Source: a virus. Taken from it: a stretch of 35,742 nt of DNA. This document shows positions 6,697 to 15,512 of this stretch, piece by piece. Under the pieces are notes generated by a model that saw only the letters and a program-made list of their open reading frames with translations, ran no database searches and was not told the DNA's origin. The translations under genes were made by a program, and so were the position numbers. Location of the stretch: IMG/VR virus record IMGVR_UViG_3300036832_002070, positions 1-35,742 of that record; one strand, 5' to 3'. Positions within the stretch are counted from its first letter, which is position 1. Each line of letters begins with the position of its first letter.

Positions 6697-6768
6697 AGCC
6701 GGGAGCAGGAATCGAACCTGCGTTTGGAAGCGTTGCGCGCTAACGCCTTACCACTTGGCTATCCCAGC
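6697..6768 (-). tRNA. tRNA-like gene, probably tRNA-Cys(GCA), with weak anticodon arm
   Basis: On the minus strand the acceptor arms GCTGGGA and TCCCGGC pair with one G-T. The D-arm is GCC..GGC around AAGTGGTAA, and the T-arm is GCAGG/CCTGC around TTCGATT. Aligned by position with standard tRNAs the anticodon is GCA (Cys), and the next 3' base after the acceptor is T, matching the U73 discriminator of tRNA-Cys. Oddities: the anticodon stem TTAGC/GCTTC has only three pairs, and position 33 is C instead of the near-universal U. No CCA is encoded, and a run of seven T follows directly. It may be a degenerating or phage-specialised tRNA. Confidence 0.65.
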
Positions 6769-7408: not shown

Positions 7409-7639
7409 ATGAACGCGAACGAAATCAAGATATGGACCAAGCCCCAGCTGGAGGCTAAACGTCTCTGCATCGAGCGATATTATCGCCTCGCTTACGGAGA
7501 GTCAGGAAATCTCAAAGTATGGAAGGATAGCCCACAGACTACTCGATGTCAGGAAGCGGCGTTTGACTGCGATGTCGAGAATGGATGTCTCAAATACATC
7601 GAACCGAAAAACTGCAGACCATACTTCAGAGCTTCTTAA
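7409..7639 (+). CDS. Small Cys-containing protein, unknown
   Basis: 76 residues, starting MNANEIKIWTKPQLEAK. It is mixed-charge with five cysteines (CIERYYR, CQEAAFDC, GCLKYIEPKNC), which could bind metal but match no pattern I know. First gene after the early promoter candidate. The stop is immediately followed by an A-tract and a hairpin. Confidence 0.5.
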   Translation: MNANEIKIWTKPQLEAKRLCIERYYRLAYGESGNLKVWKDSPQTTRCQEAAFDCDVENGCLKYIEPKNCRPYFRAS

Positions 7640-7672
7640 AAAAACCGCTCAAGCCGGTGAAGACTTGAGCGG
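7638..7672 (-). terminator. Intrinsic terminator facing the minus strand
   Basis: Perfect 9-base arms at 7645-7653 and 7664-7672 flank a 10-base loop, with a run of seven A at 7638-7644. On the minus strand this is a clean stem plus T-tract terminator. As at 270-304 it points away from the plus-strand genes just downstream, and no minus-strand gene feeds it. A small antisense RNA from 7673-7780 is one possible source. Confidence 0.6.
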
Positions 7673-7781
7673 CGTCACGCAATGCAACAAAACCCCATCG
7701 AATAAGAGCTATCGAATAAACAATATAACCAGGGGAATCGTATCCGACTCCTCAAGAAAGGCAAGACGCATCTTTCCAAAT

Positions 7782-8672
7782 ATGAATGAATCCACTACGC
7801 CGGCCGCTGAGCCGGTTCTTCCGTTCACTGCGCCGCCCACTACTCAACCAGATGGTGCTAAGGCGACAGTCCCGCCAAACCCCTTCGCGGAACGCGCCGC
7901 AGCCGAAGCAGGCGAACGCGCGAAAAAACCTTCGCTACTATCCGCGGTCATCTACAAGAAACGCAGGCGACCTCTTTATGCCGTGCTCTACGGCCCTCCG
8001 GGCATCGGAAAGTCGACGTTCGGCGCGACATTACCCAAGCCCATTTTCATCCAAACCGAACGGGGTCTCGACCAGCTCACGACGCCGAGATTCCCGATCG
8101 TCCACAGTCTCGATGAGTACAAGCTGCAAATCCAGGCGTTGCTCCACGAAGAGCATGATTACCAGAGCGTGATCATCGATACGATTGACGGACTGGACCT
8201 GCTCGTTCAGGCCGAGGTTTGTCATGAAGGGAAGTGTGATTCGATCGAATCGTATGGGGGTGGATATGGCAAAGGCTGGAACCGCGCGCGTGAGATCTGG
8301 GTGCGGATCCTCGATCGACTGACCGACATGTCGGAACGCTGGAATATCCTCATGATCTCACACGCGCAGATCAAGACGATCACTGACCCGCAAGTAGGAA
8401 CACCATTCGATATCTGGAAAATGCGGGTAGCTGATAGGTCTCAGGATGTCATCAAGCAGAGCGTTGATCTGCTGCTTTTTGTCAATTTGATACGCACGGT
8501 GAGTAAAGACTCACCTCGCGCACGCAAAGGTCGCGCAATTGTTAGTGAAGATCGCGAAATGTGGACGGCACCTACCACGGGAATCGAGTGTAAGAACAGA
8601 TTTAGCCTGCCTAACCCGATGCCGTTCAGTTGGCAAGCATTAGAAACCGCAATTGAAGAATTTCATAAATAA
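7782..8672 (+). CDS. Sak4-like RecA-fold ATPase (phage recombinase/annealing factor)
   Basis: 296 residues from the ATG at 7782; the frame is open further left but that part reads as non-coding. Residues 1-50 are a Pro/Ala-rich tail. A RecA-type NTPase core follows: Walker A GPPGIGKST at 71-79, IFIQTERG (88-95), and Walker B VIIDTIDGLD (130-139). This is the pattern of the AAA_24/Sak4 family of phage ATPases, which work with SSB in single-strand annealing recombination. The context agrees, because an SSB-like gene and an exonuclease gene follow in the same operon. Confidence 0.8.
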   Translation: MNESTTPAAEPVLPFTAPPTTQPDGAKATVPPNPFAERAAAEAGERAKKPSLLSAVIYKKRRRPLYAVLYGPPGIGKSTFGATLPKPIFIQTERGLDQLTTPRFPIVHSLDEYKLQIQALLHEEHDYQSVIIDTIDGLDLLVQAEVCHEGKCDSIESYGGGYGKGWNRAREIWVRILDRLTDMSERWNILMISHAQIKTITDPQVGTPFDIWKMRVADRSQDVIKQSVDLLLFVNLIRTVSKDSPRARKGRAIVSEDREMWTAPTTGIECKNRFSLPNPMPFSWQALETAIEEFHK

Positions 8673-9450: not shown

Positions 9451-10578
9451 ATGGACACCGACGATCGCAAGAGTCTTCCCAGCGCATCGAGCTGGCGACG
9501 TTACGAGCTTTGCCACGGCAGTTGGCAACTTGAGGCCGAAGCTCGCAAACTCGGGCAGGTGGCGCACACCACCTCGCCTTCGGCTCGCAGTGGAACGCGC
9601 ATTCACGCGTACCTAGCTGGCATCGCCGATGAGGATGGCAAAGAAATCGCGCTAAGTCCGGAAGAACAGGCGGCTGCCGATACCCTGCAAGATCAGGTGC
9701 AACAACAGATTGCGCGCATTTTCGGCGATGCGCCTTACCTCGAGCTGAATGAAAAACGGCTTTGGCTCTCCGATAAAAACATTCCGTGGCTGAGCGGTCG
9801 TTTCGATCGCTGCGTGTATACGCCCGAGACCGCTCTGTTACTGGATTATAAAACATCACACATTGCGCCAGAGCCAGCCGAAATCAGTAGTCAACTCAAG
9901 GTGCTGGCGGTCCTGGTCGCGCTGAACTTGCCGCTGGTAAAGGAGGTCATCGCACAAGTCGTCTCGCCCTACTTTGGAGTGACCGAAGCGCGGTACGATA
10001 TCGCCTCGTTGTCGCAAGCCTACAAGGACATCTTGGACACGCTGGAAGCTATCCACGATAAAAGCGCACCGCTGGTTCCGGGAGTTGTTCAATGCCGTTA
10101 CTGTCCAGCGATCCTGATATGCCAGGCGGTGAAAGATACTATTCGGCCGTTGGTCAGTCTGCAGGTGAGCGAGTTGCCGACTGATGGTGAGCGTGCGGCG
10201 CGACTTCTCGACGAGGTGGAACTTCTGCTTGTACACCTCGAGGAGATCAAGGCCTACTACAAAGGGAGATTGGCACAGGATCCGACTTTGAAGATTCCCG
10301 GGTACGGGCTGGTTCCTGGAAACGCGGTGCGAGAGATCAGCGATTGGCCGAAGGCGCGCGAAATCTTGCGGCGCTACGTGCCGGACGGCGAGTTGGAAGG
10401 GATCCCGACCTTGGCGCAGATCCAGCAGGCGTTGAAAAAGGCATTGAAGCTTTCTTCGCCGAAAACCGCTGCTGAAAAGCTGAACGAACTGCTGGGCGGT
10501 ATAATTATATTAAGCCAAAATCAACCAACATTTAAGAGGGTTTCAGGTGCGTCGTTAATAAAAGAACTTAACAAATGA
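9451..10578 (+). CDS. PD-(D/E)XK exonuclease with Cas4-like Fe-S cysteines
   Basis: 375 residues. RecB-family nuclease motifs: SASSWRRYELC near the N-terminus (C21), GTRIH (48-52, H52), GRFDR with D119, LLDYKTS with D132 and K134, then QLKVLAVL (149-156). Three more cysteines, C215, C218 and C224 (CRYCPAILIC), complete the four-cysteine pattern of Cas4, AddB and DUF2800-type nucleases that carry a 4Fe-4S cluster. It probably resects DNA 5' to 3' to feed the Sak4/SSB pair. The C-terminal 150 residues are helical. Its stop overlaps an ATG (ATGA) at the start of the pentanucleotide array. Confidence 0.8.
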   Translation: MDTDDRKSLPSASSWRRYELCHGSWQLEAEARKLGQVAHTTSPSARSGTRIHAYLAGIADEDGKEIALSPEEQAAADTLQDQVQQQIARIFGDAPYLELNEKRLWLSDKNIPWLSGRFDRCVYTPETALLLDYKTSHIAPEPAEISSQLKVLAVLVALNLPLVKEVIAQVVSPYFGVTEARYDIASLSQAYKDILDTLEAIHDKSAPLVPGVVQCRYCPAILICQAVKDTIRPLVSLQVSELPTDGERAARLLDEVELLLVHLEEIKAYYKGRLAQDPTLKIPGYGLVPGNAVREISDWPKAREILRRYVPDGELEGIPTLAQIQQALKKALKLSSPKTAAEKLNELLGGIIILSQNQPTFKRVSGASLIKELNK

Positions 10579-10580
10579 TT

Positions 10581-10913
10581 TTGGCAAGCTCAGGCAAGGT
10601 GCGGTCCGGTAGTGTTTGGCAAGCTCGGGTGTGGCAGGGCGGGCCACGGTCCGATTTGGTTGGGCAGGGGTTTGGTAGGGTATGGTCCGGCCGGGTTAGC
10701 TTTGGCGGGGTCCGGTCCGGTGAGGTGAGGCATGGTAAGGCAAGGCTGGGTTCGGTACGGTGCGGTTCGCGTCTGGCTGGGTTAGGTCCGGTCGGGTAGT
10801 GTTCGGTAAGGCGGGATCGGGTGGGCTTAGGTAGGGTATGGTGCAGTGAGCTTCGGTGGGGTGGGGCATGGCGAGGCCTGGTCTGGAGAGGTGTGTTATG
10901 GCGAGGGCTTGGT
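10581..10913 (+). repeat. Degenerate pentanucleotide (NNGGY) array, about 66 units
   Basis: 333 bases divide into about 66 consecutive 5-base units with consensus NNGGT or NNGGC. By hand count roughly 53 units have GG at positions 3-4, and nearly all end in a pyrimidine. Register is kept over 18, 19 and 27 units in a row and shifts by one base only at about 10671, 10767-10772 and 10908. Positions 1-2 are almost free. The array begins 2 bases after the exonuclease stop and ends 1 base before the start codon of the RAMP-like gene, and its last units supply a GAGGG that can serve as ribosome binding site. GG every five bases also makes a chain of potential two-layer G-quadruplexes on the plus strand. 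The frame 10575-10799 is open across it but looks like a by-product. Confidence 0.9.
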
Positions 10914-10914
10914 T

Positions 10915-11607
10915 ATGACCGGAATGTCGAAAGCGACACTGCCGCTCTCATCGCAAGATGGAAGCGGCAGCACGCTTATGATAAAAACAAAAACAAACAG
11001 ACTAGAAACAATAGGCTCAGTTTCGGATGGAGGCAATCATGATGTCGAACTTGCGTTGCCGTATGCGGTTTCTTTGCGATTACAGGAATCAACCGATTTC
11101 CTTTTCCATCGGTGGAATAATGACGCAGTTGCAGCTAAAAATGCCGCAGCGAAGGGATCAAAAGCCAAAAAAACAGATAACATAGAATCCTATGTGTACC
11201 GGGCTGACAATGGCAATCTGGCGATTCCCGGCGAGTATTTGCGTTCCTCGATTATCGGAGCGGCGAAGTTTAAGCAGGATCCTAGAAGTCCGCGCAAAAG
11301 TGCTCAGGATTTGTTCAAGGCGGGCGTAGTTAGTATGACGTTGCTGGCAGATCTCGGCGTGAAAGACTGGGATTATCTTGATCGGCGGCGTGTACTTGTT
11401 CAGAGGAGCGCGATTATGCGCATTCGGCCGGCTATAAAAACTGGCTGGAAGGCTGAATTCGTATTGTCGGTATTGGTGCCCGAATATATCAGCGAAGAAT
11501 TTCTTCGTGAAATGGTTGGCCTAGCTGGGCGACTAATTGGTCTTGGCGATTTTCGGCCGACGTTCGGCAGGTTTGACATCATTGAATGGAGACTGTTAAC
11601 AATTTGA
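10915..11607 (+). CDS. RAMP/Cas7-like phage protein linked to the pentamer array
   Basis: 230 residues from the ATG at 10915; 10924 is an alternative. After a variable N-terminus (1-45) come a beta-strand-like segment VELALPYAVSLRL (44-56), the motif NLAIPGEYLRSSIIGAAKF (101-119), a basic block RRRVLVQRSAIMRIRP (157-172), and GLGDFRPTFGRF (209-220) before W225. The 101-119 motif resembles the IPGSSLKGALR motif of CRISPR RAMP proteins (Cas7 group). The 209-220 motif resembles the C-terminal Gly-rich loop of that superfamily. It may be an RNA- or single-strand-DNA-binding protein with an RRM-like fold. The fold is inferred by eye, not proven. It lies inside the recombination operon, directly behind the repeat array. 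Confidence 0.7.
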   Translation: MTGMSKATLPLSSQDGSGSTLMIKTKTNRLETIGSVSDGGNHDVELALPYAVSLRLQESTDFLFHRWNNDAVAAKNAAAKGSKAKKTDNIESYVYRADNGNLAIPGEYLRSSIIGAAKFKQDPRSPRKSAQDLFKAGVVSMTLLADLGVKDWDYLDRRRVLVQRSAIMRIRPAIKTGWKAEFVLSVLVPEYISEEFLREMVGLAGRLIGLGDFRPTFGRFDIIEWRLLTI

Positions 11608-15325: not shown

Positions 15326-15342
15326 AAAAACAGTCCGCGAAA

Positions 15343-15512
15343 ACTGCTCCAACTACTCCAACTACTCCAAATTGGAGTTGCTGGAGCACTGCTCCAACTA
15401 CTCCAATTAAGCCTTATAATTGGAGCTGGAGTACTGCTCTACTCCAGCGCTTCTAAAGAAAAGCGCGCTGGAGCAGGAGAGTAGAGCAGTTTTTACTCCA
15501 GCCTCTAATTGG
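15343..15512 (+). repeat. CTCCA/TGGAG iteron cluster, candidate replication origin
   Basis: ACTGCTCCAACTACTCCAA occurs at 15343-15361, is extended by a further ACTACTCCAA to 15370, and recurs at 15388-15406. Inverted copies lie between and after them (TTGGAGTTGCTGGAGC at 15372-15387, AATTGGAGCTGGAG at 15418-15431, and TCTAATTGGAGC ending at 15514). Palindromes form at several nested scales. TATAAT occurs at 15415-15420. Short iterons in both orientations directly after the helicase gene suggest an origin or a repressor-binding region. Confidence 0.6.
15433..15494 (+). terminator. Large hairpin with T-tract, possible operon terminator
   Basis: A perfect 12-base outer stem (15433-15444 with 15479-15490) encloses a second stem, CCAGCGCTT with AAGCGCGCTGG. 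The 3' side has an unpaired purine-rich bulge. TTTTT follows at 15490-15494. It could end the early operon. Because it is built from the same CTCC/GGAG words as the iterons it may instead be part of an origin. Confidence 0.45.

What the first reader, a model, noticed from the sequence alone, without database searches (positions are those of the whole stretch)
10581..11607. Pentanucleotide array plus RAMP/Cas7-like protein inside a recombination operon
About 66 units of NNGGY keep 5-base register for over 330 bases with only three 1-base slips. The array fills the exact interval between the exonuclease stop and the RAMP-like start codon. The protein carries an IPG-x-x-L-R motif (103-110) and a GLGDFRPTFGRF loop (209-220) that resemble RAMP-superfamily nucleic-acid-binding proteins. 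A filament-forming protein that binds about one subunit per pentamer, on the transcript or on single-stranded DNA, would explain conserved spacing with free bases between. I recall G-rich low-complexity ORFs of this type annotated in other phages but cannot check whether the pair is conserved. The functional link between array and protein is inference.
Basis: partly seen in the sequence, partly recalled or inferred. Interest (0 to 1): 0.92.

Follow-up and report, generated by a model that had tools for sequence, protein, structure and literature searches.

The report
Phage VIPR RNA-guided DNA-binding system
This virus carries a recently described 'VIPR' system, in which a small CRISPR-like protein is steered to rival phage DNA by an RNA made of five-letter repeats whose two free letters per repeat spell out the target.

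Summary
Window 10580-10906 (+) holds 65 in-register GGY-NN pentamers, far beyond chance (HMM score 105; best of 1000 shuffles 17). The next gene (10978-11607) folds as a Cas7/Csm3-type RAMP (AlphaFold pLDDT 92.5; top 50 structural hits all CRISPR RAMPs, Z about 12). It is homologous to SUSP1 Vipr, PDB 36pp (E 9e-7 alone, 7e-50 as profile). This is the VIPR system described in a 2026 preprint (PMC13142463).

Array and gene are linked in both directions. Of 120 virus loci found by the array alone, 90 carry the gene nearby. Of 33 cellular relatives found by the gene alone, 31 carry an array, all 58 arrays on the gene's strand. Of 95 control contigs, none has either. The published one-base-skip code is reproduced in the window's own clade: seven guides match phage genes with score 20 or more at skip 1, none at skips 0, 2 or 3.

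The window's own target was not found. Its unbroken 65-unit array exceeds the 9-16 units per guide given in the preprint, so how it is divided into guides is open.

The parts
10580..10906 (+). GGY/NN pentanucleotide array (65 units): vrRNA guide region, probably several guides in register; slips split it into runs of about 18, 20 and 27 units
10907..10980 (+). structured RNA segment 3' of the array, candidate 3' tail of the vrRNA; overlaps the likely vipr start codon
   Evidence: -38.1 kcal/mol for 10895-10985, z -4.75, 0 of 200 shuffles as stable; role inferred
10978..11607 (+). vipr gene (209 aa): Cas7/Csm3-fold RAMP protein, homologue of SUSP1 Vipr (PDB 36pp); PHROG 4652
11088..11129 (-). 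stretch of this vipr gene (coding STDFLFHRWNNDA) that a rival's guide (locus L015:3902-3972) matches at 24 of 28 letters under the 1-base skip
9451..10578 (+). PD-(D/E)XK (Cas4/DUF2800-like) exonuclease directly upstream; neighbour, not shown to be part of VIPR
7563..8672 (+). Sak4-like AAA recombinase; neighbour, a relative also lies near vipr in L135, L032 and L017
11586..11813 (+). 75-aa ORF overlapping the vipr stop; no homologue found, not a recognisable vap1

Best explanation
This is a VIPR locus of an uncultivated phage. The array is transcribed on the + strand with the vipr gene into guide RNA (vrRNA). Vipr subunits coat the RNA, gripping the conserved GGY of each pentamer by RAMP thumb and G-loop contacts and exposing the NN letters. 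The NN letters pair with double-stranded DNA as NNxNNx, one target base being skipped per unit, usually the wobble base of a codon. Bound to a competitor's gene, the complex blocks transcription. Targets in this clade look like replication and recombination genes and vipr genes of rival phages. Shown here: array, fold, homology to SUSP1 Vipr, two-way linkage, strand bias, and the skip-1 code in relatives of the same clade. Taken from the preprint for SUSP1: RNA expression, RNP formation, dsDNA binding and repression. Inferred: that this particular array works the same way, and what it targets.
For: Homology to SUSP1 Vipr, PDB 36pp: E 9.3e-7, profile E 6.9e-50. AlphaFold model pLDDT 92.5, top structural matches all CRISPR RAMPs, Z about 12. 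Array first: 90 of 120 loci carry Vipr in the fetched DNA; 6 of the 30 records without one carry it elsewhere or cut at an end. Protein first: 14 of 14 viral loci show GGY/NN arrays and 31 of 33 cellular ones, 58 of 58 arrays on the gene's strand. Strand in the viral set: 210 same, 8 opposite. Control: 0 of 95 unrelated contigs with Vipr or array. Skip rule: 7 guides with score 20 or more at skip 1, 0 at skips 0, 2, 3, for example the L247 guide matching 31 of 34 letters of a gene in L265, the L243 guide on a helicase Walker-A region in L135/L032/L077, the L015 guide on vipr genes including the window's. Preprint.
Against: No convincing target of the window's own array: six 8-pair tile scans of IMG/VR gave only chance-level extensions. 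The array is one run of 65 units, not separate 9-16-unit guides each with a tail. No vap1 homologue beside the gene. No expression data.
Confidence: 0.93

Rival explanations
1. Autoregulatory binding site: the protein binds its own leader transcript at 5-base steps, like TRAP on its (G/U)AG repeats, to control its translation or that of the operon, with no external target.
For: Array abuts the gene on the same strand; a stable hairpin covers the likely start codon.
Against: Arrays often lie downstream of the gene or in several separate copies. NN letters match foreign phage genes at skip 1 in relatives. A regulatory site would not need variable, code-like NN letters.
Confidence: 0.04
2. ssDNA-binding/recombination element: the protein filament loads on single-stranded array DNA as a recombination hot spot or replication origin, consistent with the Sak4, SSB and exonuclease neighbours.
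For: Recombination genes beside the locus; Sak4-like gene near vipr in L135, L032, L017.
Against: Neighbourhood is not conserved across the family (Medea1: tail genes; wV8: DNA ligase). SUSP1 array RNAs are expressed and co-purify with Vipr (PMC13142463). Guide-target matches.
Confidence: 0.02
3. Low-complexity or coding artefact: a G-rich repeat tract without function.
For: Short spurious ORFs run across it.
Against: Only GGY is constant while NN varies, and no long-period tandem repeat is seen. Linkage to one gene family in 90 of 120 loci against 0 of 95 controls.
Confidence: 0.01

Closest known systems
VIPR system of Escherichia phage SUSP1 (type II; PMC13142463; PDB 36pp)
   Same: Homologous Vipr protein, GGY/NN arrays on the same strand beside the gene, phage genome, 1-base-skip code in the window's clade.
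   Different: Vipr is only distantly related; SUSP1 has four separate ~100-nt vrRNAs with conserved tails and a vap1 gene, the window one unbroken 65-unit array with one structured 3' segment and no vap1 homologue.
CRISPR Cas7/Csm3 RAMP backbone (types III-A, VII)
   Same: Same fold over residues ~25-209, Z about 12; protein oligomer on a guide RNA with periodic bases not paired to the target.
   Different: No CRISPR repeats or cas operon; sequence identity 7-19% in the listed alignments; period 5 with two read letters instead of period 6 with five.
TRAP (trp RNA-binding attenuation protein)
   Same: Reads short G-rich motifs repeated about every 5 bases in RNA (own knowledge).
   Different: A regulator with about 11 repeats, not RNA-guided (own knowledge); the window protein's structural matches are RAMPs.

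Membership tests
VIPR | Vipr protein: small RAMP homologous to SUSP1 Vipr | tested here: met
   (PDB 36pp)
VIPR | Flanking noncoding array of alternating constant GGY and variable NN | tested here: met
VIPR | vrRNAs of 9-16 repeats followed by an invariable structured 3' tail | tested here: inconclusive
   One 65-unit run with 2-3 slips; one structured 3' segment that has no second copy to compare with
VIPR | NN letters specify DNA with a 1-base skip | tested here: inconclusive
   Met for relatives in the same clade; no target found for the window's own array
VIPR | vipr-accessory (vap) gene, typical but not universal | tested here: inconclusive
VIPR | Array RNA expressed and bound by Vipr; dsDNA binding and repression | not testable with these tools
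   Shown for SUSP1 in PMC13142463 only
CRISPR-Cas class 1 | CRISPR repeat-spacer array and cas genes | tested here: not met
   No such repeats among the tandem repeats of the window; the vipr protein has no PADLOC match
CRISPR-Cas class 1 | Cas7-type RAMP fold | tested here: met
TRAP | TRAP fold and ring | not tested
   The model's strong matches are RAMPs; TRAP itself was not compared

The most novel reading that the evidence does not exclude
The window's clade uses very long in-register guide arrays (65 units here; 141 in L032, 182 in L077) that are read as overlapping or serial guides from a single precursor with one tail, a guide architecture not described in the main text of the preprint (its fig. 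S18, 'staggered arrays with overlapping vrRNAs', could not be read and may already cover it).
Probability: 0.25. Interest if true: 0.6.

Novelty: new member of a known kind. Interest (0 to 1): 0.52.

Why it matters
VIPR is a new kind of RNA-guided DNA recognition proposed to predate CRISPR, and the only paper on it found here is one preprint. This locus and its relatives give an independent check: the array-gene linkage, the RAMP fold and the gapped one-base-skip code all reappear in data collected differently, in a clade far from SUSP1. Its long unbroken arrays raise a question that can be tested directly, namely how such a precursor is divided into guides.

Tried and rejected
Tandem Repeats Finder reports only short pieces, because just three of five positions are constant. 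Rfam finds only a tRNA in the window, so no described RNA family such as a hammerhead covers the array. blastn of the region against phages found one weak array-to-array match. tblastn with decoded peptides from the window array gave nothing usable. Six IMG/VR scans with 8-pair NNx patterns from the three runs of the array gave 59, 3, 21, 12, 2 and 0 hits. The best extension was 19 letters in a primase-like gene (L184), about what 59 hits give by chance, so I do not claim it as a target; a resemblance of the last units to a DUF5662-like peptide (L194) was dropped for the same reason. A test on the first 1.2 Mb of held loci with shuffled guides gave only a slight excess at skip 1. The clear result came after the 33 cellular loci were added; that larger set was compared with other skip lengths, not with shuffled guides. 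The skip-test score thresholds were chosen while looking at the data. NN dinucleotides resemble codon positions 1-2 read in sense best (r 0.47), a weak supporting sign only. The 8 opposite-strand arrays (4 in L078) were not explained.

Full report
What was checked. The window is a virus record from IMG/VR, 35,742 bases. The array lies at 10580-10906 on the + strand. A six-state HMM (background plus G-G-Y-N-N) finds 65 units and two internal 1-base slips, with a third at the 3' end. Its score is 105, against at most 17 in 1000 dinucleotide-preserving shuffles. The five positions in the window are G 95%, G 86%, T/C 98%, then two nearly even positions.

The protein. ATG 10978 is the likeliest start: close homologues align from about residue 10 and the conserved domain starts near 11008. 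Pfam and PADLOC have no match for it and PHROG 4652 is of unknown function. phmmer against the PDB finds a single sequence, 36pp 'SUSP1 Vipr protein', E 9.3e-7. A profile of 86 relatives gives E 6.9e-50 to the same chain and nothing else significant. The AlphaFold model (83 sequences, pLDDT 92.5, pTM 0.84) matches Csm3/Cas7-type RAMP subunits, Foldseek E down to 2.7e-7 and VIA-align Z about 12 over residues 25-209; the first 50 rows of each list are all from CRISPR effector complexes or their RAMP subunits.

Array and gene belong together. Starting from the protein, 14 viral loci were fetched and all show GGY/NN arrays directly beside the gene (HMM segments). Of 30 loci without one (29 or 30 from this scan, plus one Felixounavirus record), 6 have a full or partial match in their whole record. 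Ninety-five contigs fetched for other patterns contain neither. A third, independent set of 33 Vipr genes from cellular assemblies (43-63% identical) has arrays in 31; in the other two the gene starts at the edge of the contig. Arrays lie on the gene's strand in 210 of 218 cases in the viral set and in 58 of 58 in the cellular set (counted). Strand bias points to RNA, or to one DNA strand, not to a duplex site.

What it is. A literature search found preprint PMC13142463 (bioRxiv 2026.04.26.720920), which describes VIPR: a phage-encoded RAMP, Vipr, with vrRNAs of 9-16 YNNGG repeats and a 3' tail, whose NN letters pair with double-stranded DNA with one skipped target base per unit. It was the only paper on VIPR found in the library. 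The window has the defining protein and array, so it is a member of this kind. It differs from the SUSP1 prototype in having one unbroken array and no vap1 homologue.

Independent test of the code. I decoded the NN letters of all held arrays and looked for matches in the held DNA with 0-3 skipped bases, with the arrays masked. In the first 1.2 Mb the excess at skip 1 was small against shuffled guides. With the cellular loci added (2.4 Mb), distinct guides scoring 20 or more number 7 at skip 1 and none at skips 0, 2 and 3 (the window's own guides were left out because some loci had been fetched with them). Examples: L247:4826-4974 matches 31 of 34 letters of the sequence coding KRDDNGEFTNVIKGYAK in several Phycisphaerales loci; three related guides match the Walker-A-like region VVIPTGGGKTPV of a helicase-like gene in phage contigs L135, L032 and L077; guides from L251, L254 and L243 fall in one ParB/methylase-like gene of L109; L015:3902-3972 matches vipr genes antisense at the FHRWN stretch, including the window's own vipr (24 of 28 letters, 11088-11129). 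In the cases displayed where the gene is read in the guide's sense, the skipped base is codon position 3. The gene names here rest on motifs seen in the sequence, not on a family search. Related loci and related guides are not independent of each other, so the seven guides represent perhaps four or five independent events.

Guide length. In several arrays of 20-30 units the match begins at unit 1 and covers 13-23 units, so a guide can start at the 5' end of an array, and guides longer than the published 9-16 units are possible. The window's slips split its array into runs of about 18, 20 and 27 units, which could be separate guides. This is inference. Other members of the clade hold 141 units without a slip (L032) or 182 with one or two (L077).

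The 3' segment. Bases 10895-10985 fold with z -4.75. Hairpin-like or otherwise distinct sequences also follow arrays in relatives such as L017 and L135 (read by eye). It is a candidate vrRNA tail that overlaps the start codon of vipr. Covariation was not tested.

Target of the window. Not found. Six scans of IMG/VR with 8-pair patterns gave no match clearly beyond chance. These patterns cover only part of the array and require exact matches, so this says little.

Verdict. A VIPR locus, new as an instance and already explained as a kind. Interest lies in the independent support for the code in a clade distant from SUSP1, and in the long unbroken arrays.

Noticed in passing
loci L036, L044, L065 and others (list): 24 of the 30 array loci without Vipr in the fetched DNA have none anywhere in the record, some records being 50-105 kb long: possible orphan guide RNAs that would borrow Vipr from another element, as the preprint reports for satellites; a few (L047, L129) are low-complexity.
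   Followed up: partly
L139 (Escherichia phage SSBS18_WS_10_728), 5967-6180: A Felixounavirus record with two arrays but no Vipr match in its 86 kb.
   Followed up: partly
L136 (phage wV8), 5356-6946: The record's unexplained 58-base repeats 'DR_4' flank the Vipr homologue and lie at the 3' ends of arrays: probably vrRNA tails.
   Followed up: no
L078, 2739-3050: Four short arrays on the strand opposite to vipr, the main exception to the strand rule.
   Followed up: no
L017, 639-1200: Five separate 13-17-unit arrays, four of them followed by a repeated GCCTTATTGC..GGAATA(A/G)GGCGG hairpin: the separated-guide form in the window's close clade.
   Followed up: partly
window 6697-6768 (-): A tRNA gene (Rfam), upstream of the recombination genes and on the opposite strand.
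   Followed up: no
window 15342-15439: A short tandem repeat (9 and 45 bases) just after the primase-like gene.
   Followed up: no
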